From contig OY848920.1 of the NCBI GenBank assembly GCA_963693285.1, positions 5,221,135 to 5,285,134 of the forward strand: 64,000 nucleotides of DNA, written 5' to 3'. Of this stretch, positions 3,181-51,000 are shown piece after piece. The stretch comes from Xestospongia muta. Lineage: Eukaryota; Porifera; Demospongiae; Haplosclerida; Petrosiidae. Each line of letters opens with the position of its first letter. The stretch's first letter is position 1. The notes under the pieces are model-generated. The model searched no databases and was not told the origin of the DNA. It saw nothing but the letters and a program-made list of their open reading frames with translations. A program made the translations under genes and the position numbers.

Positions 3181-4238
3181 ACTACATCCATCATTAAAAC
3201 TTTTTCTTTTATTTAGTATTAATTTTAATTTTAATTACACATATATATTGTACATATCTAATAATAATAGTAAAAATAATAAACGTAATATTAACGGCAA
3301 TAATAACAACAATATTTATAATGATTTTAAGTGTTAATATTTGTGAGTTCTAAAGAGAACAAATAGTCTAACCTAGCTGGTCAATTTTCGCTGATTAATG
3401 AGAGTATACGTAGCCTGTCGTTTTCTTATATGATGAAGTAACTTTACAATAAGTCAAGAATAATTCAGACTAAAATATTCACTGCATGCTTGTTAAGCTA
3501 ATTAAAATATGGTGTCAATAGATGTGTGGCTGCGCATGTAGTGTTGCAAGGAAGTAATTATTGAAAGGAGGTGCATCCTTTAACTATTACTATAGCAACG
3601 GTTGCTATCTGCAATATTGGGGGTCAAGCTTAGTGCACTTTAATACCAATAATACGTAATCTTTTTTGAGTACATTACTAATATCTCTGCTGATACAAAA
3701 GAATGGTATCAGAGTAAATTGCAGTATGTGGGGCTGTTATCATACCCATGTGGAATGAGGAATGAAGAGTGGGAGTGGAGAACCAGAAAAACTTCCTTAA
3801 ATCAACTGGAGTGATATCATGCTCAAAATAGTCTCTACTCCCAGCCGTCACACAAAGGAAACATTAAAAGTAGTAGCATATTTGAATTTACTGTAAATTT
3901 AGTAATATTGTTAATATACCAGGCCTGGCATTGTCATGCATGCTTAATGATGATGTTTGTTATGAATATTATATCAGGGTTTTTTCAGGTTTTTCACCAA
4001 AGAGGGGGGCAAAATAAGATATAATGGAAGAGTGGGGGGGGGGGGGGGGGGCAAGTGATATCCACGTGCTTTGCAACAACATTAATTGTATGAAGTTGAA
4101 AACAGTTATCAAGTTATTAAAAACAGACTTAAGTTTTGAATAACTATAAAGTAGTTAGTTCTATATATTTACTTTCAATTCAGTTTTGATTTCTGTTGAT
4201 GTCTTCTTTCTTCTTTGACCTCCCAAGAAATATTGACT
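3181..4238. other. Non-coding upstream region of gene 1
   Basis: No ORF or domain is recognisable. It contains an 18-base G run at 4034-4051, which stands out in AT-rich DNA and is a likely replication or sequencing slippage site. The promoter of the gene starting at 4239 should lie here, but I see no convincing core motif. Confidence 0.4.
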
Positions 4239-7200
4239 ATGGCATCAAGTCTGGGTGAGTTAAAAATTAAGTTCCTTTTCTCATTTATAAATGTCATTTT
4301 CATTTTAGATGTTGCTAATTTGAAAGATATCATTGAAGCCTTGAAGAAAGGTCTTTTCCCAAACCATCGCTGGTCTCCTCTTGGTCTACAACTGGGTCTA
4401 TTACAACCTACTCTGTCAACCATTAAAGCAAACCATAAAGATGATGTAGAGAGTTGTCTTCAGGAGTGTTTAACTCTGTGGTTGAGTAAAGCTGACAAGG
4501 TGACTGAGAGTGGAGGTCCTACATGGGACTCATTATCTAGTGCTCTCAATAAGATTGATGAGAATTTCACTGCTGAAAAGATAAAAGAATTTAGTGAGGA
4601 AGTAGAGTTTGCTTTACATAATATATATATCTTTAATTTTTACAATTGAAGAGTCATTTATTCCTGCCTGTCAAATGTTACAACAACACACTGACAGACT
4701 CTCACCTCTCATTCTTCCTGTGGAGATTGTTCAGATGTTATATGAAGAGAGAGTGATCTCTAAGGAAACATTAGATGAAGTCAATAGATTGGGAAGTGTA
4801 CTAGGAGAAGGTCCATTGAGAGCACTGTGTACTACAGTGTCTAAAGACCCTAACATTTTAAAAGTCTTCGCAAGTGTCTTGTTGAAATCTGAAGAAACAG
4901 TACAGATTGCTAAAGATATACTCGAGGAATATGGTAAATAATTTATATAATATTAATCTTCCATTATCACTTTTATAGAGCAAACGTTTCCTTCCCGAGT
5001 CAATCTTCAGTGCACTTATCAGTATGATTTTGATCAGATGAAAGTGACCTTTGGAAATCTCATTGAAACAGTTTCACCTCTCATTGAAGCTAGCATTCCT
5101 ACATTGAAGGAGCTGATAAGATATCTTCGGAGATGTTTTCAAGATCTGAGACCTCAACTTACTACAGCTGAATCATTTGATGATGTGATGGAACTTGTAC
5201 AAGATAAATGTACTATTATCAATGTCTGCTGTTTGGAGGCTATTGTCAATCACTACAAGATCACAGCAGCTAAACCACACATTGAAGAATTCAAGACAGC
5301 TGTTGATGCATTTTGTGAGAAGATCAAAACCGATATATGCCTTAAACAGAACTTCAAGATAGCTTCATTTTCTCATCATCTCACTATTGAGACTATTGAG
5401 TTTGTGCTGGAGTGGGAGGCTGACAAATACACACTTAGAGATATCAAACATTTGCTATCAAAAGCATTTGGAGACATGGCTAATTCTGTACAAGTTAGAG
5501 TAGTTAATGATGGTAACTCCATCATTGTTACCTGCTATGCTCCTCTAAGTTTGATGAACTTCTTACTAACAGCAGCAGAGAGGAATTTTAACATACTGAA
5601 AGAGAATGGAGTGATAAAATTAACATTTGGCTATCACACCATTTATGATAAATGTCAGAGAGATAAGGTAAGAGATGAGTAGTATTAAACAACAGTTACT
5701 AAATGTATTGTATATAGGAGATTAAGGATCTCAAACACAAACTGGAGTCAAGGGACACAATTATTAGAGAGATGACAACAGAAATGGATGATTTGAAATC
5801 ACAGCTTAGAAACAGTAAAGGTCAGTCCAACCTTGAAGTAATAGATATAATGTTAGTCAAGTACATTATGAAAAAAGCACAAGAGCCTATGTCTTGAATG
5901 TTTTCAATACACATTTTATCAGATTTATTCTTGTGTTTCTTGGTACAACATTTGAAATCCTAACACTCTTAGAGACCTGACTTCATCAATTAGTACCACA
6001 ATCAACAAACACTTAATTGATGTAACACATCTATCATGTAAATTAACTCTGTGGTACAATATGACCAACACTATATGGCAGTACCTTTAATACAATCATA
6101 CATTGAACAATAAACTATTAAGAGTTCATACGTCCATCAGTAGATTGAGTCTATAAAGGAACATACATCATTTAGTACACTAGTGTATCAACAATAATAG
6201 GATCTCTTTTGTCCTAGAGGTAGAAAATTATTTCATTAGCTCTATTTGAATACTGTTGTGCTAGGTCTTTGTTGAATAATTGTACATAAATATTATGTGT
6301 AATTATTTTTACTACTGTCAAATATTTTGTATAGATGAAAAACTAATGAAAGAAAGGGAGATTGAAGAAATGTACCAAGGAAAGAAAGGTAGTAATGTCT
6401 TATTCATGTAACACAGCTTGTATCATTGTATTAATCTCATATACTGTAGCTACTGAAGAGGAATTAAATTTAGTGAAACAAATGGTAGAACAGAAAGAAA
6501 GAGAGATTAATGACTTGACATCATTGTTAGCAATGAAGGAAGGTAAGAAATCTGATGTAATGATGAATTTTGTGATACTTTTAACATTTATATCAACAAT
6601 AAATGCTTCTCTCTTTATAGCTCTTGAAGAGGAACTGGACACACTTAAAAACAAAATACTAGAAATGTCTAGTGTCACAGAAACTAAAGGTAAGCTCTTA
6701 ACAACAAGTACTATGTACACACTTGTTCTCTCTTGTTTATAGAGTCTGAGTTGAAACAATTGTTAGAAGCAAGTACTAAAATGAACAGGGCAAAAATTTT
6801 ACAGATAGAACAGTTAACAAATACCATCAAGGAAAAAGAAAGTAAGATGTTAATAATATACACACTACTGTATTAATGAGATATTCCATAGTCTTTGAGA
6901 AGGAGTTATTGTCAGTGTCTGTTGAGAGACAAGGAGAGATAGAGACACTACAAGAAATAATAACAAGATTGAGATTACAGCTAAGAGAGAGAGACAAACA
7001 GATTGAGGAGTTAAAGCAAAGCTTGAAAGGTAGCTGATATTAGTAGATAATTGTTACTTCTCATTATATGACATTGTTACTAAATGTAGCATTTATACAA
7101 AAGCCTCAGAAACCATTAACTGATGAAGGACTTCATAGGTCTAGTCAAGAAGAGTCCACACTATCTATCAATGGTAAGTGTCATAGTACCATATCTATGT

Positions 7201-8958
7201 CTTAGGATGTGTCCATTGTCCATATATGAAAATGTTATTTCAGCATGTACTTGAGCTTAAACCACGTAATCACATGTTGTTGTTTACAAATAAACTATTT
7301 TGGTGACAGATACAGACAAGTCAATGACTTCTAAACAACTTTACAGATTTGGTTCTTAGTTAGTCTCACTCACCTTTTCTTTGTTAGCCTAGTCCTGATC
7401 ATCTCCTTGTAATAGCACATGATAAAATTGTACAACCGCAAAAGTTAGCCACCACTTTGCCCATGAAAGTATATACCTTATATGGTATTATAAGATAAGG
7501 ACTTGTCATAACAGATAGTACATGTTAGTGTATAAAAGTTCAACACTCCTTCTCTTCTTCATCCACTCCTGACTACATATATTATACAAACTATATTGTC
7601 ATTACTTATTGTAGAGTCTTCAGTACATGAGTTGAGAGATGAAGCAAAGGGTTCAACTGATGATAAAGAGTCAGGTTATGGTATGTTATGTTTTGATGTT
7701 TCATAAAGTTACATAATAATGATGTATTAGTGGTCTATACAGAAGCTGTTGTCAAACGTTCTTTCATCAAAGTATATCCTGTGGAATTAACTATAAATGT
7801 TGGAGATGTTATCAAAGATGTCATTAAGGTATGGACACGTCCTTTTTGTCCATCCATTCATTATGTCAACATATTATTTAAAGATCATCTCTAATTATAT
7901 TATATATTTTCATAGATTGATAAAGGATGGTGTGAGGGGACTCTGAATGGAGTCTATGGGATGTTCCCTATACATTTTACAGAACTACAACTAGCTAAAT
8001 CTGAATTATCTCATGATGATCCCAAATTAGGAGGTAATCCCTGTAATTTGTTCATTAGAACTTAATTTATAATGTTTTGTATAGTACAGTTTGTAACACT
8101 ATATATTATATGTGTACACTATATCTACATACTAACTCTGTTTATAACAGGACATACTGGAAGAGTTGAGTGGAGAGATGATATAAAGTATGTTTGGCTT
8201 ATCTCACCAACTATTGAACAATGTGAAGAGGTTGTAGCAGATTAATAAAAGAACAACAAACCAAAGGAAGTAGGTGGAATATCAATCTCAGATCATCATC
8301 TCCTGAAAGTGCTCTTGTAATTATTAGTAATCTCAGTAAGTGTGCAGTGATAACACTTGACATACACAGCACTCCATTGGACAGTATCTGTATGTCAACA
8401 TTATCAGCGGAGCTAGAAACTACTCATAAAACAATGATAAACCTATTTCTTCGTTACTCTTCACTTACTGGTGGTATCAAACAAATCAGTGATGCTCTCT
8501 TTACCAATACTACTCTTGAGTTGTTAGTGTTGATTAATGTTACTATCACAGATGAAGATACCAGTAACTTATCTACCATGTTAAGTATTAATAAGACATT
8601 GGATATACTACAACTCTCCAACTGTAACATCACTGATAATGGTGTCCGATACATTTGTGACGGCCTCACTAAAAACCAAACACTGACTGTGTTGGACATT
8701 AAATATAATCCTCAGATCACTTCAGCCAGTACCAGTACAATAGCTGAACTAATAAATACAACTAAATCATTAACAGAACTACGTCTCTATGGTACTTCAC
8801 TGAACAATGATGATATCGAGACTATTTGTACTTCACTCATTAAAAATACTACAATACAGACATTATACTTATCTGAACAACACAAAGAGTATTGTATGAA
8901 GTTAGACAGTTATCAAGTTATTAAAGATAGACTTAAGTTCCTGCCAGTCTTTAAGTAG
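4239..8958 (+). CDS. DD-CARD-like-coiled coil-SH3-(LRR) gene 1, frameshifted before the LRRs
   Basis: Exons by splice sites and comparison with gene 2: 4239-4254, 4309-4593, 4652-4933, 4979-5667, 5718-5820, 6335-6388, 6450-6542, 6621-6689, 6743-6841, 6892-7029, 7090-7173, 7615-7680, 7743-7828, 7916-8033, 8151-8958. Exon 2 is a death domain, exon 3 a second CARD-like death fold, exon 4 an alpha/beta domain of unknown function, exons 5-12 a coiled coil and acidic linker, and exons 13-14 an SH3 domain (GWCEGTLNGVYGMFPIHF). In exon 15 one base is missing relative to gene 2 (GTTGTAGC versus GTTGTTAGC, near 8236). This gives TAA at 8243-8245 and a predicted protein of 758 aa without LRRs. The LRR frame stays open from there to 8958. 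It is either a truncated decoy-like protein, a young pseudogene or a sequence error. Function is inferred: death-fold scaffold or receptor. Confidence 0.75.
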
Positions 8959-10977: not shown

Positions 10978-11602
<625 letters not shown>

Positions 11603-11945: not shown

Positions 11946-14900
11946 ATGGCTTCAAAAGTACTTTCTCAACCTCAGCTAGGTAAGAATATCATCTCAGCTC
12001 ATACAATTTTATAAAGCACATAGCGTACATGATATAATGGACCACTTATAGCGTGGGGGTTTTATTTTAAATTCCTCATTCTCTGAAAAAGTTGGTAACT
12101 TATGTATATATGTTCTGTCAACATAGATAGTATGTCTTTATTATCACTTCTAAATTGGTTTACAATATTTCATTTATTACAGACACTGACAATTTGAAAG
12201 AAATAGTTGATGCTTTGAAGAAAGTTCGTTTTTCAAATTATAAATGGTTTCCTCTTGGTCTACAACTGGGTCTATTATCACCCACTCTGAAAGATATTGA
12301 AGCAAACCATAAAGATGATGTAAGGAGATGTCTTCAGGAATGTTTAACTCTGTGGTTGAGTAAAGCTGACAAGGTGACTGACAATGGAGGGTCTACTTGG
12401 GATTCATTAGCTGACGCTCTTCGCAATATAGAAGAAAATTTTGCAGCTGAAAAAATAATAGAATTTAGTAAGAAATTTAATGATGGATATGTTAGAAAAT
12501 ACCATTTATTATTTTCTTCTTTTGTTATAGAATTCTCCACTCCAGCTTGTCAAATGCTACATAAACACACTGACAGGCTCTCATCACTGACTCTTCCTAT
12601 GGAGATTGTTCAGATGTTACATGCAGAGAGAGTAATCTCTAAGGAGACATTAGATGAAGTCAATAGATCAGGAGGTGTACTAGGAGAAGGTCCATTGAAA
12701 GCACTGTGTACTACAGTGTATGAAGAGCCAAACAAATTAAAGAAGTTCGCTAGTATATTATTGAAATCAGAAGAAATAGTACAGATTGCTCAAGACATAC
12801 TCCAGGAGTATAGTAAATAAATATACATATTATTCTATTGTGACTTCCCATTTTGTTACACAGATCAAACATTTCCTTCTCTAGTAATAGTTCCAGCCAC
12901 ACGTCAATATGATTTTGATCGAATGAGAGTGACCTATGGAAATCTCTTTGATAAGGTTGCACCTCTCATTGAAGCTAGCATTCCTTCGCTTGACAAACTG
13001 AAAAGGTACCTTCGAATGTGTTTCCAAGAGCTAGCACCTCAATTGAACACAGCAAAATCTTTCAATGATGTCATAGATATTGTTCAAGATACATGTACCA
13101 TCATTATTATTTGCTGCTTAGAAGCCATTGTCGATCGCTATGAAATCACTGAAGCCGAAAAACATATCACAGAATTCAAGAAAAAAGTTGACACTTTTTG
13201 TGAGATGGTGAAAGCAGATATATGCCTTAAGCAAAACTTTAAGACAGCTTCTTCTTCTCATCTTACTTGTGAAAGTATTGAGTTTGTTGTGGAATGGAAG
13301 ACAAATGAATGCACACTCCGTCACATTAAAGGTTTGTTGTCAAAGGCGTTTGAAGGTATGGCAAAATCTGTCCAAGTTAGAGCAGTAAATGAAGGCAACT
13401 CCATCATTATCATCTGCTATGCTCCACTAAGGTTGATGGATTTTCTGTTAATGGTTGCCAAAAGCAATCTTGACTTACTTAAGGAAATGGGAGTCATTAA
13501 ACTCACTATCGGCTATCATATTATTTTTGATAAGTGTAAAAGGAATGAGGTTAGAATTGAATTGTTTAAAAACAAAAATTATCTTATTACTTATAGGAGA
13601 TGAGAGCTATTGAAGAAGATTTAGAGGATCTCAAACACAAACTGGAGTCAAGGGACACAATTATTAGAGAAATGACAACAGAAATGGATGATTTGAAAAC
13701 ACAGCTTAGAAACAGTGAAGGTCAGTCCAACCTTGAAGTAATAGATATGGTGTTAGTCAAGTACATTATGAAAAAAGCACAAGAGACTATGTCTTGAATG
13801 TTTTCAATACACATTTTATCAGATTTATTCTTGTGTTTTTTGGTAGAACATTTGATATCCTAACACTCTTAGTGACCTGACTTCATCAATTAGTACCACA
13901 ATCAACAAACACTTAATTGATGTAACACATCTATCATGTAAATTAACTTTGTGGTACAATATGACCAACACTGTATGGCAGTACCTTTAATACAATCATA
14001 CATTGAACAATAAACTATTAAGAGTTCATACGTCCATCAGTAGATTGAGTCTATAAAGGAACATACACCATTTAGTACACTAGTGTATCAATAATAATAG
14101 GATCTCTTTTGTCCTAGAGGTAGAAAATTATTTCATTAGCTCTATTTGAATAGTGTTGTGTTAGCTCTTTGTTGAATAATTGTACATAAATATTATGTGT
14201 AATTATTTTTACTACTGTCAAATATTTTGTATAGATGAAAAACTAATGAAAGAAAGAGAGATTGAAGAAATGTACCAAGGAAAGAAAGGTAGTAATGTCT
14301 TATTCATGTAACACAGCTTGTATCATTGTATTGATCTCATATACTGTAGCTACTGAAGAGGAATTAAATTTAGTGAAACAAATGTTAGAACAGAAACAAA
14401 GAGAGATTAATGACTTGACATCATTGTTATCAATGAAGGAAGGTAAGAAATCTGATGTAATGATGAATTTTGTGATACCTTTAACATTTTATATCAACAA
14501 TAAATGCTTCTCTCTTTATAGCTCTTGAAGAGGAACTGGACACACTTAAAAACAAAATACTAGAAATGTCTAGTGTCACAGAAACTAAAGGTAAGCTCTT
14601 AACAACAAGTACTATGTACACACTTGTTCTCTCTTGTTTATAGAGTCTGAGTTGAAACAATTGTTAGAAGCAAGTACTAAAATGAACAGGGCAAAAATTT
14701 TACAGATAGAACAGTTAACAAATACCATCAAGGAAAAAGAAAGTAAGATGTTAATAATATACACACTACTGTATTAATGAGATATTCCATAGTCTTTGAG
14801 AAGGAGTTATTGTCAGTGTCTGTTGAGAGACAAGGAGAGATAGAGACACTACAAGAAATAATAACAAGATTGAGATTACAGCTAAGAGAGAGAGACAAAC

Positions 14901-16864
14901 AGATTGAGGAGTTAAAGCAAAGCTTGAAAGGTAGCTGATATTAGTAGATAATTGTTACTTCTCATTATATGACATTGTTACTAAATGTAGCATTTATACA
15001 AAAGCCTCAGAAACCATTAACTGATGAAGGACTTCATAGGTCTAGTCAAGAAGAGTCCACACTATCTATCAATGGTAAGTGTCATAGTACCATGTCTATG
15101 TCTTAGGATATGTCCATTGTCCATATATGGAAATGTTATTTTAGCATGTACTTGAGCTTAAACCATGTAATCACATGTTGTTATTTACAAATAAACTATT
15201 TTGGTGACAGATACAGACAAGTCAGTGATTTCTAAACAACTTTACAGATTTGGTTCTTAGTTAGTCTCACTCACCTTTTCTTTGTTAGCCTAGTCCTGAT
15301 TATCTCCTTGTACCACATGATAAAATTGTATAACCACAAAAGTTTTCCACCACTTTGCCTATTAAAGCATATACCTTATATGGTATTATAAGATAAGGAC
15401 TTGTCATAACAGATAGTACATGTTAGTGTATAAATGTTCAACACTCCTTCTCTTCTTCATCCACTCCTGACTACATATATTATACAAACTATATTGTCAT
15501 TACTTATTGTAGAGTCTTCAGTACATGAGTTGAGAGATGAGGCAAAGGGTTCAACTGATGATAAAGAGTCAGGTTATGGTATGTTGTGTTTTGATGTTTC
15601 ATAAAGTTACATTATAATAATGTATTAGTGGTCTATACAGAAGCTGTTGTCAAACATTCTTTCACCAAAGTATATCCTCAGCAATTATCTATAAATGTTG
15701 GAGATGTTATCAAAGATGTCATTAAGGTATGGACACGTCCTTTTTGTCCATCCATTTTTTATGTCAACATAATTATTATTTAAAGATCATCTCTAATTAT
15801 ATTATATATTTTCATAGATTAGTAATGGATGGGGTGAGGGGACTCTAAATGGAGTCTATGGAGAGTTCCCTATAAATTTTACAGAACTACAACTAGTTAA
15901 ATCTGAATTATCTCATAATGATCCCAAATTAGGAGGTAATCCCTGTAATTTGTTCATTAGAACTTAATTTATAATGTTTTGTATAGTACAGTTTGTAACA
16001 CTATATATTATATGTGTACACTATATCTACATACTAACTCTGTTTATAACAGGACATACTGGAAGAGTTGAGTGGAGAGATGATATAGAGAATGTTTGGC
16101 TTATCTCACCAACTATTGAACAATGTGAAGAGGTTGTTAGCAAATTAATAAAAGAACAACAAACCAAAGGAAAACGTAGATGGAGTATTAATCTCAGATC
16201 ATCATCTCCTGAAAGTACTCTTGTAATTATTAGTAATCTCAGTAAGTGTGCAGTGTGGACACTTGACATACACAGCACTCCATTGGACAGTATCTGTATG
16301 TCAACATTATCAGCAGAGCTACAAACTACTAATAAAACAATGATAAACCTAGCTGTTCGCTACTCTTCACTTACTGGTGGTATCAAACAAATCAGTGATG
16401 CTCTCTTTACCAATACTACTCTTAAGTTGTTATCGTTGATTAATATTACTATCACAGATGAAGATACCAGTAACTTATCTACCATGTTAAGTATTAATAA
16501 GACATTGGATAAACTATATCTCTCCAACTGTAACATCACCGATAATGGTGTCCGATATATCTGTGAACGCCTCACTAAAAACCAAACACTGACTGTGTTG
16601 GACATCAGTTATAATCCTCAGATCACTTCAACCAGTACCAGTACAATAGCTGAACTAATAAATACAACTAAATCACTAACAGAACTATATCTGGATTGTA
16701 CTTCACTGAACAATGATGATATCAAGACTATTTGTACTGAACTCATTGAAAATACTACAATACAGAAACTATACTTATCCAAACAACATGAAGAGTATTG
16801 TATGAAGTTAGACAGTTATCAAGTTATTAAAGACAGACTTAACTTCCAGCCAGTCTTAAATTAG
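11946..16864 (+). CDS. DD-CARD-like-alpha/beta-coiled coil-SH3-LRR protein, gene 2 (intact model)
   Basis: Exons: 11946-11979, 12183-12467, 12531-12812, 12864-13549, 13597-13720, 14235-14288, 14350-14442, 14522-14590, 14644-14742, 14793-14930, 14991-15074, 15513-15578, 15641-15726, 15818-15935, 16053-16864. They total 3030 nt, in frame throughout, giving 1009 aa. All sites are GT-AG; the exon 4 donor is a weak GTTAGA. Domains: DD about 12-106 (FPLGLQLGLLSPTL ... CLTLWLSKADKV); CARD-like fold about 107-200 (IVQMLHAERVISKETLDEV); alpha/beta domain about 201-429, unrecognised; coiled coil and linker about 430-671; SH3 about 672-739 (INVGDVI, GWGEGTLNGVYGEFPINF); about seven ribonuclease-inhibitor-type LRRs about 740-1009. 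There is no NACHT/NB-ARC ATPase, signal peptide or membrane segment, so it is likely cytoplasmic. It resembles an NLR with the ATPase replaced by coiled coil plus SH3. A role in sensing or death signalling is inferred. Confidence 0.85.
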
Positions 16865-32460: not shown

Positions 32461-35400
32461 CAATGTCTTCAGATAATCTTCGTAAATCCTTGCTACATTT
32501 CTGTTTGATAGCTCTTAAAGCATCTAACAAACTCCTTCTTGTTGCTTTATCAGCTTTCTCTTGAATCCATAACTGATACATACTGGTTAAGCGTTGACAT
32601 TCAGCTAGATTGACACTGTCTAGTTGTAATTGTGTACCCAATTCATTCCACTTTTCAGTTCTAGCATGTGTAGTTATTTCTTGAATTGTAGGCTGTTGAT
32701 CCAAGAGTTCATTCAGTGACATCTTACTATATCCTATATGAAGTAGATGAATTACACTGTAAATAATATTATAAAATGAAATTATTGTTATTCACTTTTC
32801 ATTGTTTGTTAAGCAAAAGTCAACACATTATATTAATGACCACATTATGTACAAGAGAAATCACATCTAATTTATTGTTTGATCAAAGAAATCAGAATTG
32901 ATAATACTTATAGTACCATATTTGCTGGTTATTAAGCGCATGCGCTTGTATCTCCACAGGAAGAAAATATGCGCTTAATAAGGATACAAATTAACAAATG
33001 GCTTTTGTGGATGATGTCACTTTTCTGGGTGTGGCTCTCACTCGAGCATGTGGAGGATATGACTGGTGTTTCTACTGAGTTCTCATTTGACAGCGTAATT
33101 CAAGGTCATCACATTTACAAAAATGTATGGATGACTTCAATTGGAGAAGTTCTTCTATTAGTGAAAGAGAAAGCAAATGAACACGACCATTTTGCTGTAT
33201 CTGTGATGAAGGACGGATTCATCGTTGGTCATGCATATTGCTTATTAATAATTCATCAATTGCTTAAAGAGCAAAAAAAGTTCTGACCAAGATAAATGTG
33301 TGCAGTTACAAACAGTATGCGGTTAATAACCATATGTACCTAACAACCAGAAAATACAGTAGGCTTAAAAGTGGTTGGTTCTAAACAACAAAGGTGGAGC
33401 TTGCATGTGTGTTGATATTGTTAGGACAGGATACATACTGTACAAACTCATGTACATAGTATAGTATTATAACAAACTTTGAGTGATATGTGGTCTTAAT
33501 TAATGCTATTTAGATGATAACTAAAACAAAGTCTAGTTATCATTGTTTTTCATTTAAAAGTAATTAGATAAGTATGGCAACAACAAGCTTTCCAACAATA
33601 GCTTTTGTCAGTTTTGAAGTCACTATCATGTCATGTCTGACTCCTCAGAATGTTGATTAATGTCAACAATTAATGTACTGTAATAAAAATGTGCTTTATA
33701 TAGAATAAGTTACACTACAGGTTAACAAAGTAGAAGAAATGTTTATTGACATACCAACTAGTTTAGGGTCTTGACTAGCAGGATGAGGAGGTGACGGTAG
33801 TGTAGCTATAGAATAAATAAGGATAATAATTAGAGATAAAAAGTACAATATTATATATTGAATGTAATATAAACAAGTAACTAGTAATGATATAATACTA
33901 ACATAATAATACAAAACTATTATTAAAACATCTAGCACTTGATTTTTTAATGTACAATAATGTCAATATAGTATTAGTTTGTTATATGAACATATATTCC
34001 CAAATTAAATTGAATGATTTGTTTGTATAATTCCAAGATTGTGCACTATGTAAATATTTTAAAGTAAAATTATTGTTATTTCACTTTTCATTGTTTCTTA
34101 ACTAAAATCTCATCACATTATCATTGACAACCACATCATGTACAAGTGAAAAGATATCAAATTTATTCTTTAATCTAGCTATAACAACAAATTTAAATTA
34201 CTATTAAAAACAGGTTTTGAATTACTGATGTTGCCTTAAAAAGTAATTAACTTGAAACAAACAAAGTAATGACTAAGACACACCTCCTGTTCATTATTAA
34301 TTTAATATGACCAATAATGTAAGGCAATATTTTTAATGTACCTACACATCAAACAATAATACTATATGTTAGACTACTTTAAACGTACCCTCCACAGTGA
34401 ACCAAGGTAGTTGACAGGATTTATTGATACAAGCAGTTGTATGGCTGTCACAACAGGTGACTGTTTTCTGGTCATCATTTAAATAACAGAAATGTTCTGG
34501 AGATTTATTGGAGCATATCTTACAATAAAAATATTCTCTAAGGCTTTTAAAGTTAGCCATACATTGAAAATTGCTGATGACTTCACAGATGCCAGAATGG
34601 ACAGCTTCACGTAAAACACAGCATCTTTTTAATGGATCAGTACTGTATATTGCCATCCAGTAAAGCCCATCGACTAAGAGAATGTCACCATAATCAGTAC
34701 GTAAAGTAATAGCATTACGATAACGTGGAGTGGAATGTGAAGGATGTCTAAGTTGAAATATTGATGAATGATTACAATGTAGAAGGTTGACAACTAATGC
34801 AGGAAAGACACCTCGAGGAAGAGGCTTCATATCCCAAGAGAGTATTAGAGAGTCAGTGCATTGCTTGAATGAAGCAGGTATAGATTTATATTCTATAAAG
34901 GAGGTGGTAGTAGGAAGGACAGTTGGTAGAAAGTATTTTCCTTTCTCAGGTAGAGAGGCCATTATAAATAAACTTGTCATTAACTTGAGAAAATCTTGTG
35001 GTGTAAACTCAGGATAGAATCCTTGTGATAAATGTGAATTGGGTGATGTTAACAGATCTTCTTTAAATGTTGCTTCATCTTTTAGTTCTTCATGAGCAGC
35101 ATAACTATGTATAGGGATACCTTCTTCCTCCAAGTAATCAACAACACCAGGAAAAGAGATACTGATTAAATCAGAGAGTTTATTGAAAAGTGGTTGTGGA
35201 TGAAGGAACACTACATTAGGCAATATTTTAGGAAAGTACAGAAAGATGGTCAGATCATGGTAGTAGTTTAGAGCTGCTTTGATGTCACTAGCACTCATTT
35301 GTAAGGTCATACCAATCTCTAAACAATTAGACAGACTTACAATGTTGGATTTAGAAGACTTTTGGAGCTCAAGTTGAAAAAAAAACCATCTAATAGGAAT

Positions 35401-35535
35401 TTTTTCTGCCTCAATGTAATACTGACAGATTTTCTTCCGAATTCTAGCAGCCATTTTCATCTCATCATCACCTCTGTCAATAGAATTGACTGGAAAAATT
35501 ATTTCATTTCCAGATCTGCGATGCATAATTGTGAT
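32461..35535 (-). pseudogene. 5'-truncated COR-DD gene
   Basis: Exons on the minus strand: 34389-35535 (COR-type region, NEIIFPVNSI ... AARIRKKICQYYIEAE ... LPRGVFPALVV ... PWFTVEG|GTACGT), 33755-33805 (Pro-rich linker TLPSPPHPASQDPKLV) and 32461-32735 (death domain MSLNELLDQQ, TEKWNELGTQLQL). All junctions are phase 1. The GTPase half is absent: homology to the 48829-50844 exon stops near 35535, so there is no start or Walker A. The terminal DD has lost 2 bases relative to the 48-kb copy, so helix 6 (NNVARIYEDYL there) becomes KCSKDLRRL here. A shortened scaffold protein cannot be excluded, but decay is more likely. Confidence 0.65.
32927..33331. mobile_element. TIR element carrying a HIRAN-domain fragment
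   Basis: The left end GGTTATTAAGCGCATGC and the right end (reverse complement GGTTATTAACCGCATAC) form inverted repeats, flanked by 'ccatat'/'atatg'. Inside, the plus frame from 32969 encodes FSFDSVIQGHHIYKNVWM, then IGEVLLLVKEKANEHDHFAV and VMKDGFIVGHA. That is the HIRAN pattern (xGxxxY...W.P.iGE.L...E..N.hD.fAV.V..dg..VGH.p). The frame is truncated after VGH. The element lies in an intron of the decayed COR-DD gene. Confidence 0.6.
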
Positions 35536-35750
35536 TTGCCGATATTTATACAAAAAATAATTGAAATTTCATAAATATCACTAACATAATAACAATATTA
35601 ATATTCATATATTAATATATTTTGTATTTCTTTTAAATTTGAATTACGATACTCGTATATATATTTTGAGTAGACTGAACGTTTTAGACGAACCCGGATG
35701 AACCCGATCAATCACATTTGTATCAGGTTGCCTTGGCGATTAAATATGGC

Positions 35751-48057: not shown

Positions 48058-51000
48058 TATTGTCATCAGATAATCTTCGTAAATCCTTGCTACATTGTTC
48101 TGTTTGATAGCTCTTAAAGCATCTAACAAACTCCTTCTTGTTGCTTTATCAGCTTTCTCTTGAATCCATAACTGATACATACTGGTTAAGCTATGACATT
48201 CAGCTAGATTGACACTGTCCAGTTGTAATTGTGTACCCAATTCATTCCACTTTTCAGTTCTAGCATGTGTAGTTATTTCTTGAATAGGAGGTTGTTGATC
48301 CAAGAGTTGATCCAGTGACATCTTACCTATCAAATATAATAAAATATACTAATATTTTTAAAGAGAGTAATGTTAATAAAACCTTTATAGAAAGTATATA
48401 ATACTACAAAGACAGTACAGGTAGTAGGAACACTATGATACTATCAGATTATTGTATTGTCAATTGTTTCTTTAAACAAAGTACACTCAATTCAATAGCT
48501 ATAGACTTGAAAAAGTCCTTTTAACAAAAGGTGCTCTTCAATATAGTGGCATTTGTATGTAAAAGTTAACATAATGAAAAAATCATCATATAATCTTATA
48601 TGTAATGTATTACATATATCACTACTGTATGCTCTAACATGTAGTTACAAATAATATATAATAACACTTTGTGGTAGTCAGATGATCTAATGCTTTGGTT
48701 ATTAAATTGAGAGGATGTCTTTCACACAAGTTAGAGGAAGATGAGAGATACTGTTTAGTTTTGACATTAAATATAATTATAATTATAAATTAGTAATATA
48801 TGTATTGTTACAGTAAATCAAAACTCACCATTCATGGGATACCAAGGTTGCTGACGAGTTTTATCGATAACATTAGAAGTACAACTTTCACAGCATACGA
48901 GTGTTTTCTTATCTTCCTTTAACTGACAAAAATGTTCTGTAGTTTTATTGGAGCATAAGGTACAGTAGAAATATTCTTTAAGGTTTCCTACCGTAGATAT
49001 ATATCGGAAGTTATGTATCACCTCACCAATTCCTGTATGGACAACTTCACGTATAGTACTACATCTTTTGTAAGGATCTGAATAATATACTGCAATCCAA
49101 TAAATTCCATCAACTAATAGAACATCACCATAATTAGTGTGTAAAGTGATCATATTACGATAACGTGGTGTGGAACGTAGAGGACGTTTGAGTTGAAATT
49201 TCAGGTGATCTTTATGATGTAAAATGTTCACGACTAATGCAGGGAATACACCTCGAGGAAGAGGCTTCATATCCCAAGACAAAATTAGAGGATCTACATG
49301 TTCCTTAAAAGGAGATGGTATAGACTTATACTCAGTGGATGGTCTAGTAGGAAGGACAGTTGGTAGAAAGTATTTTCCTTTATCAGGTAGAGAGGCCATT
49401 ATAAATAAACTTGTCATTAACTTGAGAAAATCTTGTGGTGTAAACTCAGGATAGAATCCTTGTGATAAATGTGAATTGGGTGATGTCAACAAGTCTTCGT
49501 TAAATGTTCCTTCATCTTTTAGTTCTTCATGAGCAGCAGGATTGTATAGAGAGATACCTCCTTCTTCCAAATGATCAACAGCATCAGCAAAAGAGATACT
49601 GATTAAATCAGAGAGCCTCTCGAATAATGGTTGAGGATGAAGAAATGCTATATTAGGTAAGATTTTAGGGAAGTAGAGAAAGATGGTCAGGTCATGGTAG
49701 TACAACAATGCTGCATGAACTTCTCTAGGGTTCATTTCTAAGGTCATGCCAATTTCTAAACACTTAGACACAACTACAATGCTAGATTTCGAAGATTTAT
49801 GAAGCTGATCTAATTCAAGTTGAAACAAAAACCATCGAATAGGGATTTCTGCCTCAATATAATACTGACAGATTTTCTTACGAATCCTAGCAGCCAACTT
49901 TATCTCATAATCATTTCTGGAAGTAGTATTGACAGGAAATATTACTTCATTTCCAGCTTTACGATACATAATTGTGGCTTCCTTAAATTTTTCTAAAACT
50001 GTTGAGAGAATAGTATTTTTGGTTTTGAGAGACTCACCAGACTCCAACATTTTATCCAAGAATGTCCCTAGTACTATGTAGTAGGGTTCTTGAACATGTT
50101 TGATATGGATGTTTGGTAACTCTGGAAAATCTACTGACAACACTGAGCGAAATGATGATTCAATAAGTTGTAAATTTGTGATCTGTTTTTCTACTGGTTC
50201 TCCAATTTGCTTTCCCATAATACTGAAGAAGAACTTGGCTTTGTCGTTAAGCTTTTCATCTAACTTGTGTGTTAGAATATTGACAGAGTGATATCGTAAC
50301 AAAATCGGAGCAATGTCTAAAAAGGGAGCCTGACCACCAGTATCAACACCATATATCCAATGAGATTGATAAAGCTCTTCAGATTTCTGTGCATGTGGTA
50401 AAAGCTTAATAATTTCCTGAGTTACTGTAGGTTTGGAAAAAGAAGAGCTCTGATCAACTGTTTGATGACCAGCTATAGTTGATGATTCAAAATCGTCACT
50501 GTCTGATGTTTCTTCTGCTGAGTGATCGACTGATTCCTCTAATGACTCTTTTGGTTTGTGAGGTCGGACGCTATGTTTAACTCCTTGAGCAATTATTGCT
50601 TTAAGAGACTCGTGGTCTATTTTTCTCCACACAGAATCATCACCTACAGTCGCAGATATGATCCTTGGTTCTTTTGCTGCAACTACTGGAGTACTGCTAT
50701 GGCAATGTGGAGGATCCTCATTATAAAGCAGGTTTAAAAAGGACGACTTGCCAGTTCCAGGTGCACCTGAGACAGAAAACTTGGACCATTTAGCAGTGAC
50801 GTAGCCCTCCTTCATAGCTTTGTCCAGTAACTTCTTGTTAGCACCTAATGTATAAAAGAAATAAAATTTCAAACTTTAATTTAAGTAAATAATGTTAACA
50901 AGAATTACATAATATATTATAATAATTAGACTTCTAAATGTGGTAGCTATAAATTATAGATATTTTAAATTTCTAATTCAATCCTTTAGTAGTAGCTAGA

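What the first reader, a model, noticed from the sequence alone, without database searches (positions are those of the whole stretch)
8347..8958. LRR exon differences between the two paralogs fall on exposed strand positions
Comparing 8347-8958 with 16253-16864 by eye, about 27 codons differ in amino acid and about 12 differ silently. About 14 of the 27 lie in the LxxLxLxx strand motifs, only about a quarter of the exon, and nearly all at x positions in every repeat (FL/AV, V/S, I/K with Q/Y, K/S, R/Y with Y/D and G/C, T/K). Structural leucines are almost untouched, while introns of the same genes are nearly identical. This is the signature expected of diversifying selection, or of patch gene conversion, on a recognition surface.
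Basis: partly seen in the sequence, partly recalled or inferred. Interest (0 to 1): 0.88.

Follow-up and report, generated by a model that had tools for sequence, protein, structure and literature searches.

The report
Receptor genes with hypervariable binding surfaces
An animal genome (probably a sponge) carries dozens of similar copies of a death-domain receptor gene that differ mainly at the amino acids expected to touch a ligand, the pattern of an immune or self-recognition repertoire shaped by selection and by swapping between gene copies.

Summary
Confirmed. The two exons differ at 27 amino acids (25 aligned plus 2 at the C-terminus) and 12 codons silently; 12 of 35 exposed LxxLxLxx positions differ against 13 of 168 others. 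In 40 paralogous exons, 25 of 45 exposed positions but 0 of 27 structural leucine positions show beta > alpha. A second subfamily repeats it (33 of 45 against 1 of 27; dN/dS 3.1); separate segment trees do not remove it in A. Exposed codons diverge six to seven times more than neighbouring introns. AlphaFold2 places the sites on the strands of an NLRP/ribonuclease-inhibitor-like LRR domain. New: the adjacent SH3 domain is also diversified (dN/dS 1.3-1.7), apparently at its ligand groove. Copies with dissimilar 3' flanks share one pool of LRR sequence, pointing to gene conversion. The named copy is frameshifted upstream of its LRR. Selection plus conversion is well supported; ligand and function are inferred.

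The parts
8151..8958 (+). LRR exon of copy 1 (the finding's 8347-8958 is its 3' part); its LRR frame is open from 8227 to the stop
   Evidence: ORF 8227-8958; exon start by homology with copy 2
8231..8245 (+). one base fewer than in copy 2, and resulting stop (8243-8245), in copy 1
   Evidence: frame open through coiled coil and SH3, then stop after ...EEVVAD
16053..16864 (+). LRR exon of copy 2, intact, nine LxxLxLxx strands, ends in stop
   Evidence: spliced ORF of 1010 aa; AF2 pLDDT 94.6 for residues of 16064-16861
16091..16783 (+). the nine exposed-strand blocks of copy 2 (x2/x3 to x8): 16091-16108, 16184-16201, 16256-16276, 16343-16363, 16424-16444, 16508-16528, 16592-16612, 16679-16699, 16763-16783
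   Evidence: 25 of 45 x codons positive in A; 33 of 45 in B; strands in the model
15641..15726 (+). SH3 exon a, copy 2 (ALYDY-equivalent and RT loop, hypervariable)
   Evidence: Pfam SH3_2 above cut-off; positive sites
15818..15935 (+). SH3 exon b, copy 2 (n-Src loop, Trp, FPxNF)
7743..7828 (+). SH3 exon a, copy 1
7916..8033 (+). SH3 exon b, copy 1
11946..11979 (+). exon 1 of copy 2 with a possible start codon
   Evidence: by eye
12183..12467 (+). Death domain exon, copy 2
   Evidence: PF00531, 28.5 bits against cut-off 22.6
12531..12812 (+). second exon of the signalling end, probably death-fold, copy 2; the copy 1 equivalent (4606-4938) matches CARD weakly, below the cut-off
   Evidence: PF00619 21.1 bits against 23.9 for copy 1; no match for copy 2
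12864..13549 (+). helical region plus beta-alpha-beta-beta-alpha-beta region, TRADD-N-like
   Evidence: AF2 secondary structure, mean pLDDT 71; S179 invariant in 44 sequences
13597..14930 (+). coiled-coil exons (six)
   Evidence: spliced translation; coiled coil judged by eye, no predictor run
14991..15578 (+). linker exons 14991-15074 and 15513-15578
4200..4649 (+). Death domain ORF of copy 1
   Evidence: PF00531 27.1 bits
4957..5682 (+). TRADD-N-like ORF of copy 1
   Evidence: aligned with copy 2 at about 70% DNA identity

Best explanation
The two exons belong to a large family of receptor-like, probably intracellular proteins: an N-terminal Death domain, a second probable death-fold exon, a TRADD-N-like adaptor, a coiled coil, an SH3 domain and a C-terminal ribonuclease-inhibitor/NLRP-type LRR domain. 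Shown by computation: the LRR framework, the coiled coil and the 3' introns are kept similar across paralogs and appear to pass between copies, while residues on the exposed face of the LRR strands, and at what look like the ligand-groove positions of the SH3 domain, differ far more than introns do. Inferred: the LRR concave face and the SH3 groove bind variable ligands (microbial or self/non-self); binding clusters the coiled coils and lets the Death/death-fold/TRADD-N part assemble a signalling platform for cell death or inflammation. Diversity arises from point changes at contact positions, recombined by short-tract gene conversion among copies and retained by diversifying selection.
For: Site tests: 25 of 45 x positions, 0 of 27 L positions, 11 of the 221 positions outside the x set (Fisher 9e-15). 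Segment trees: 22 of 45 x, 0 of 27 L, 33 sites in all; beta_x/alpha_x 1.80, p = 8e-6. M8 against M8a: 2dlnL 409 (A, segment trees), 2238 (B, one tree), 211 (SH3, one tree). Second subfamily: 33 of 45 x, 1 of 27 L, dN/dS 3.08, 23 positive sites shared with A. Neutral yardstick: introns 0.036-0.042, x codon positions 1+2 0.252, L codons 0.037; in B, intron 12-72 nt before the exon 0.016 against x pN 0.289. Structure: strand x sites 18 of 27 (A) and 24 of 27 (B), strand L sites 0 of 17 in both. SH3: 14 of 68 sites positive; 11 of 17 groove positions against 3 of 51 others. Signalling end constrained: Death 0.51, second exon 0.41, TRADD-N-like 0.26. Conversion: four-gamete fraction 0.48-0.65 in intron pairs more than 30 nt apart; no differentiation by 3' flank type. 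Frames kept: a stop inside 1 of 147 LRR matches; stops are listed for 13 of 144, several of them at the natural end of the frame, since one search shows the same places without one.
Against: Neutral simulations (omega 1) with four different trees analysed under one tree gave 3-40 false positive sites in 4 replicates, so single-tree counts and the very large M8 statistics for B and SH3 are inflated; B and SH3 were not run with segment trees. The enrichment at x is not explained that way (0-8 of 45 in those simulations). Synonymous divergence is also raised at x codons (alpha_x 1.5, p = 0.003), third positions of non-x LRR codons (0.065-0.079) exceed introns as well, and the Nei-Gojobori bootstrap interval for A includes 1 (0.91-2.33). 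PHI was not significant (p = 0.33). No expression, ligand or population data exist here. The TRADD-N assignment rests on a moderate model and no PDB match.
Confidence: 0.75

Rival explanations
1. Same genes and same selection, but the ligand is self: the family is a germ-line allorecognition (histocompatibility) repertoire rather than a pathogen sensor.
For: A-type proteins in the protein database fall into two classes when compared with the 87 LRR exons I hold from this genome: 26 of 67 are at least 99% identical to one, 39 of 67 are below 94%, 2 lie between, as if whole sets of copies differ between haplotypes or individuals. Sessile animals and allo-incompatibility are named as a context in PMC8195603 (passages seen).
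Against: Nothing ties the proteins to the cell surface: the 1010-aa product starts almost directly with a Death domain. Missing copies could be an assembly gap, the database is clustered at 90% identity, and its sources are unnamed.
Confidence: 0.2
2. Relaxed constraint: exposed positions simply tolerate change and no diversifying selection is needed.
For: Exposed x positions are the least constrained part of any LRR (general knowledge); Nei-Gojobori dN/dS at x in A has a bootstrap interval reaching 0.91.
Against: Relaxation cannot exceed the neutral rate: x codon positions 1+2 differ at 0.252 against 0.036-0.042 in introns of the same copies, and B gives dN/dS 3.08. LRT beta_x against alpha_x p = 8e-6.
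Confidence: 0.05
3. A local or programmed mutation mechanism raises change at these codons.
For: Synonymous rate at x codons is 1.5 times the rest; synonymous heterozygosity at conserved codons next to hypervariable ones is 0.118 against about 0.04 five to fourteen codons away, rho -0.16, p = 0.02.
Against: The six codons 15 or more away are again at 0.115, and two-fold codons alone show no trend (n = 70, rho 0.01). Transition fraction at x codons (0.48) is close to introns (0.53). Leucine-position codons are spared in amino acid (dN/dS 0.13). The same kind of pattern in a different fold (SH3) argues for protein-level selection.
Confidence: 0.07
4. The signal is an artefact of recombination confusing a single tree.
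For: Copies are heavily recombined and neutral simulations show inflated counts.
Against: In A it persists with separate segment trees and in tree-free contrasts with introns; recombination does not know the LRR register (shift control).
Confidence: 0.03

Closest known systems
Amphimedon NCOA6-clade TRADD-N expansion (Kaur et al. 2021, PMC8195603; start of abstract, passages and section 10 seen)
   Same: 357 proteins; 1-3 Death-like domains then TRADD-N, then a variable C-terminus, most commonly ankyrin repeats or SH3 followed by LRRs; counter-invader role proposed
   Different: The text seen reports architecture, copy number and raised column entropy of TRADD-N clades; the terms 'positive selection' and 'hypervariab' do not occur in its main text. 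No site-level test on LRR or SH3 was seen there.
Zebrafish NLR-B30.2 family (PMC4852459; start of abstract and passages seen)
   Same: Nearly 400 copies, most on one chromosome arm; gene conversion acts differently on different domains; positive selection in one recognition domain
   Different: There B30.2 is selected and the LRRs are called not particularly variable, with a NACHT domain; here there is no NACHT match, and LRR and SH3 are the selected modules
Plant highly variable NLRs (PMC8226289; abstract and outline seen)
   Different: Plant NLR scaffold; variation measured among alleles, here among paralogs
Fungal NLRs (PMC4986451; passages seen)
   Same: Positive selection on WD, ANK and TPR repeats, with the ANK and TPR sites nearly all on concave or binding faces; concerted evolution
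   Different: No LRR found there; repeats within a gene are nearly identical and shuffle within and between genes; here the repeats of an exon differ and exchange is inferred between genes
NLRP3/NLRP14/NOD2 and ribonuclease inhibitor LRR domains
   Same: Fold: Foldseek best hits 7zgu, 8ej4, 9ln6, TM-score to the query 0.76-0.77, 20-24% identity; sequence hits 4per, 3tsr
   Different: Those belong to other architectures; ligand modes may differ
CD2AP and CIN85 (SH3KBP1) SH3 domains
   Same: Closest solved SH3 relatives by sequence (2j6f, E 2.8e-8)
   Different: Here positions aligned with ALYDY tyrosines, RT loop and n-Src loop are hypervariable; Trp34 kept in 37 of 37 copies, Pro47 in 36 of 37
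Lamprey VLRs (recalled, no call)
   Same: Diversity on the LRR concave face over a constant framework
   Different: Somatic assembly in VLRs; here separate germ-line genes

Membership tests
Amphimedon-type TRADD-N receptor family (Kaur 2021) | one to three Death-like domains at the N-terminus | tested here: met
   PF00531 above cut-off in both copies; second exon only weakly CARD-like in copy 1, no match in copy 2
Amphimedon-type TRADD-N receptor family (Kaur 2021) | TRADD-N domain after the Death-like unit, RRM-like fold with Ser in the beta2-beta3 turn | tested here: inconclusive
   beta-alpha-beta-beta-alpha-beta prediction, mean pLDDT 71; S179 invariant in 44, preceded by Asn rather than a tiny residue; Foldseek none at E 0.001 or below, ferredoxin/ACT-like folds among weak hits; the profile search found only ribosomal protein L7, E 0.011
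Amphimedon-type TRADD-N receptor family (Kaur 2021) | C-terminal SH3 followed by LRRs | tested here: met
   SH3_2 24.4 bits against 21.8; LRR_6 31.8 against 23.4
Amphimedon-type TRADD-N receptor family (Kaur 2021) | organism is Amphimedon | not tested
NLR (NACHT/NB-ARC plus LRR) | NACHT or NB-ARC NTPase domain | tested here: not met
   no such Pfam match in the scanned pieces of the 1010-aa product, all but the 11-aa exon 1
Ribonuclease-inhibitor-like LRR | alternating strand-helix repeats of about 28 residues | tested here: met
   AF2 model with nine motif strands alternating with helices, Foldseek, phmmer
SH3 domain | curated profile match | tested here: met
   PF07653 above its cut-off
Lamprey-type VLR | somatic assembly from cassettes; secreted or anchored product | not testable with these tools
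   no somatic data; the product begins almost directly with a Death domain; no signal-peptide predictor was run

The most novel reading that the evidence does not exclude
A NACHT-less animal receptor repertoire with two diversified recognition surfaces in one protein, an SH3 ligand groove and an LRR concave face. Their residues are close to linkage equilibrium across the genes (short-tract conversion reassorts the strands nearly independently), and the set of copies differs between individuals or haplotypes: a germ-line combinatorial recognition system near the base of animals, possibly for allorecognition.
Probability: 0.4. Interest if true: 0.85.

Novelty: new variant of a known kind. Interest (0 to 1): 0.64.

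Why it matters
Large animal innate-receptor families are usually discussed as NACHT proteins (general knowledge). Here a death-fold/TRADD-N-like family without a NACHT match carries a site-resolved selection signal on two binding surfaces, which says where ligands should bind and turns 'what do these expanded death-domain genes of early animals recognise?' into a testable question. A diversified SH3 groove would be an unusual use of a domain normally kept for fixed proline-rich partners (general knowledge). Dissimilar 3' flanks with a shared exon pool give a natural experiment on gene conversion in an immune-type repertoire.

Tried and rejected
PHI test on the LRR exon: p = 0.33, no signal; read as reshuffling too fine for neighbouring sites to agree more than distant ones, in line with near-zero LD at all distances among 30 synonymous sites, but the null result stands. 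Mutual information between surface residues: slightly raised within a repeat in A (mean z 0.92, 4 of 31 pairs above 3; p = 0.019), not significant in B (2 of 52; p = 0.15), about zero between repeats (A: 0 of 320 pairs above 3; B: 5 of 543). Whole-intron yardstick for B: a MAFFT alignment gave p = 0.257, which contradicted the yardstick from A; on inspection only the stretch next to the exon is similar throughout: 0.016 at 12-72 nt, rising to 0.225 at 192-272 nt, in 15 of 20 loci (5 left out because their acceptor string differs). SH3 replicate in B: not possible, no match to the SH3 motif I used in the about 700 nt upstream in 20 of 20 B loci. The first exon model had a wrong acceptor for one linker exon, corrected; the linker, SH3 and LRR figures are void. 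Mutation-spectrum test for a mutator: nothing unusual. Pfam of ten other window ORFs: no match above cut-off.

Rows dropped and sampling: A exons 45 found, 40 used; left out L037_81, L019_6501, L027_7549 (stops), L039_551 (identical to L038_551), L048_551 (truncated). The frameshifted window copy 1 is among the 40 and among the 37 SH3 rows. A further disrupted A copy at C4:4829398-4830175 and a fragment at C4:706697 were never in the 45. B: 40 exons fetched out of 99 scored below the A block, taken mostly from the top of that ranking and passing over those listed with stops, so not a random sample; two more B-like exons in L013 and L020 were left out. SH3: 37 of 40 (three tandem LRR exons have no SH3 upstream). 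The 22-row gene matrix still holds L019_6501 and the partial L027_7549. Intron four-gamete test: 18 of 21 rows (coverage above 0.85; L027_7549 left out before). Flank test: 28 of 40 (5 with other flanks and 7 near-identical left out). Codon models, FUBAR-like grid, M8/M8a and PHI are my own code with fixed tree shapes; only the grid was checked by simulation.

Search for print: the full-text searches listed no title or abstract start about selection on sponge SH3-LRR genes; the library holds only open-licence PMC papers and lists were capped, so this is weak evidence of absence.

Full report
What was claimed and what is there. The two 612-nt stretches are open reading frames ending in a stop, with 47 base differences. 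Counted exactly, 25 aligned residues differ, plus the final two, and 12 codons differ silently; 12 of 35 strict x positions and 13 of 168 others differ (Fisher 1.2e-4). The complete LRR exon begins earlier, at 8151 and 16053, and has nine repeats.

The gene. Copy 2 splices, on a gene model made by eye from splice sites and open frames, into an uninterrupted 1010-aa product over 15 exons, 11946-16864: a Death domain (PF00531 above cut-off), a second probable death-fold exon (CARD-like below cut-off in copy 1), a 229-aa exon with a helical part and a beta-alpha-beta-beta-alpha-beta part (AF2, mean pLDDT 71), a coiled coil (judged by eye), an SH3 domain (SH3_2 above cut-off) and the LRR exon. Copy 1 is open through the coiled coil and SH3 but has one base fewer at the start of its LRR exon and meets a stop at 8243-8245. 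A window-encoded 188-aa entry (P0081) is listed with the same longest-contig length, 1,157,507, as the protein of copy 2 (P0001). Most A-type entries are near 295 aa, so the deletion may also be present in that other assembly and not be a local error; but other A-type entries of 188-203 aa exist too, so this is only a hint.

The family. The assembly (G000, 158 Mb, 28 contigs, window at C4:5221135-5285134) holds many relatives. A protein search scored 144 LRR matches out of 523 candidates: 45 at 80% identity or more (subfamily A) and 99 at 62-71%, mostly on C4 between 8.5 and 10.4 Mb (subfamily B). A search from B scored 147 of 542 candidates. Both are lower bounds. Stops inside the match are listed for 13 of 144 and 1 of 147; several of the 13 are at the natural end of the frame. 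I fetched 40 of the 99 B exons, mostly the best scoring.

Selection in subfamily A. Forty of 45 A exons were aligned. A FUBAR-like grid of my own gave a whole-exon omega of 0.92 and 36 of 266 sites with posterior above 0.9 for beta > alpha. These lie on 25 of 45 x positions, 0 of 27 L positions and 11 of the 221 positions outside the x set (Fisher 9e-15); all nine x3 positions are among them; sliding the motif by up to 14 residues never gives more than 15 of 45. Because copies recombine, I split the exon into four segments with their own trees: the likelihood rises by 724 units (with many more parameters), and 33 sites remain, 22 of them on x and none on L. With those trees, beta_x/alpha_x = 1.80 (LRT 19.9, p = 8e-6), and alpha_x is itself 1.5 (p = 0.003). 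M8 against M8a gives 2dlnL 409. Nei-Gojobori dN/dS is 1.44 at x (bootstrap 0.91-2.33), 0.13 at L and 0.58 elsewhere: this measure alone does not exclude 1, because synonymous differences at x codons are raised too.

Controls. Eight simulations on the four segment trees, analysed with one tree, gave 3-40 false positive sites (four with omega 1) and 1-5 (four with omega 0.6), of which 0-8 of 45 fell on x. Absolute single-tree counts are therefore not trustworthy; the concentration on x is. The strongest yardstick needs no tree: in the same 37 copies the three introns around the SH3 and LRR exons differ at 0.036-0.042 per site, LRR L codons (positions 1+2) at 0.037, other LRR codons at 0.050, and x codons at 0.252. 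Relaxed constraint cannot produce six to seven times the intron rate. A caveat: third positions of L and other LRR codons (0.079 and 0.065) also exceed the introns, so introns may be somewhat more homogenised than the exon.

Independent replicate. Forty B exons give omega 2.28 under one tree, 49 sites, 33 of 45 x positions, 1 of 27 L positions (residue 8), Nei-Gojobori dN/dS 3.08 at x, 0.39 at L and 1.08 elsewhere; 23 of the positive sites coincide with A's. B was not run with segment trees. The intron next to the B exon differs at only 0.016 (12-72 nt upstream) but at 0.225 by 192-272 nt (15 of 20 loci). So the B exon sits at the edge of an island of homogeneity while its exposed codons are its most divergent part (pN 0.289).

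Structure. AF2 with 54 sequences gives pLDDT 94.6, pTM 0.91 and a strand at each of the nine assigned motifs. Within strands, x sites are positive in 18 of 27 (A) and 24 of 27 (B), L sites in 0 of 17 in both. The closest solved folds are NLRP3, NLRP14, NOD2 and ribonuclease inhibitor.

The SH3 domain. Not in the finding, but adjacent: the two SH3 exons differ at 0.107 and 0.092 per site against about 0.04 in their introns, with dN/dS 1.31 in 37 copies, 1.68 in the 22-row matrix and one-tree omega 1.54; 14 of 68 sites are positive. Aligned to CD2AP SH3, 11 of the 14 fall on the ALYDY tyrosines, RT loop, n-Src loop and the FPxNF end: 11 of 17 groove positions against 3 of 51 (p = 2e-6). The groove list is recalled textbook knowledge and was drawn up after seeing the sites. 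Trp34 is kept in 37 of 37 and Pro47 in 36 of 37. Death, second exon, TRADD-N-like, coiled-coil and linker parts have dN/dS 0.26-0.53. B genes show no match to my SH3 motif within about 700 nt upstream, 20 of 20.

How diversity is shared. LD between synonymous sites is near background at every distance. In introns of 18 copies, 48-65% of site pairs more than 30 nt apart show all four gametes, against 0 of 6 pairs within 10 nt, with weak decay of r2 (rho -0.16, permutation 0.006). Surface residues in different repeats show almost no association. Most direct: A copies carry dissimilar 3' flanks directly after the stop (the two window copies differ here), yet 23 copies of one type and 5 of the other are not differentiated in the exon, not even in the last 46 codons (within 0.111, between 0.104, p = 0.69). 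Five copies is a small group. The simplest reading is short-tract gene conversion across the family. PHI alone did not detect it.

Mechanism. Shown: similar framework, diversified exposed faces, signs of exchange among copies. Inferred: the faces are ligand-binding; the coiled coil oligomerises; the Death-fold/TRADD-N end signals. I put 0.75 on selection plus conversion in a recognition receptor. Whether the ligand is microbial or self is open: 26 of 67 A-type database proteins are at least 99% identical to an exon I hold from this genome, 39 of 67 below 94%, 2 between, which hints at repertoires that differ between haplotypes or individuals but could reflect an assembly gap.

Relation to the known. 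Kaur et al. 2021 (PMC8195603; start of abstract, passages and section 10 seen) report 357 such proteins in Amphimedon with SH3-LRR among the commonest C-termini, and propose a counter-invader role. This family very probably is that one, though the genome here is unnamed and TRADD-N could not be confirmed by fold or profile. The zebrafish NLR-B30.2 family (PMC4852459, passages) is the nearest evolutionary parallel: one chromosome arm, domain-specific conversion, selection on one recognition module. Plant hvNLRs (PMC8226289, abstract and outline) and fungal NLR repeats (PMC4986451, passages) show the same kind of surface selection. New here, as far as the searches named in Tried and rejected reach, are the site-level demonstration for LRR, the same for SH3, and the shared-pool evidence; hence a new variant of a known kind.

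Noticed in passing
8231-8245: One base fewer than in copy 2 and a stop at the start of copy 1's LRR exon: the finding's own exon is probably no longer joined in frame to its gene.
   Followed up: yes
L016:5573-9652 and L018:5901-8344: Genes with three (L016) and two (L018) LRR exons in tandem (unit about 1.65 kb); the extra exons are open but have no SH3 in the 520 nt upstream. Possible alternative last exons or gene fragments; no convincing acceptor seen by eye.
   Followed up: partly
11126-11600: A further, broken and divergent LRR exon between the two genes, behind a long CT repeat (about 10980-11120).
   Followed up: no
5000-5700 against 12985-13680: Sharp change from about 70% to over 95% identity between the two paralogs near the start of the coiled coil: 5' and 3' halves have different histories.
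   Followed up: partly
8959 and 16865 onward: The two copies have dissimilar sequence directly after the stop codon; among 40 A copies 30 have one flank type, 5 another and 5 neither.
   Followed up: yes
   Followed up: partly
34369-35568 and 48818-50875 (minus strand): Large ORFs that look alike by eye; the first matches COR-A of Roc-COR proteins below cut-off; Death-like ORFs below cut-off lie nearby (32423, 55390): perhaps another expanded Death-Roc-COR family.
   Followed up: no
P0001-P0120: Many relatives carry precomputed Pfam accessions PF27087 and PF27089, which my Pfam scan of the window protein did not list; their names were not looked up.
   Followed up: no
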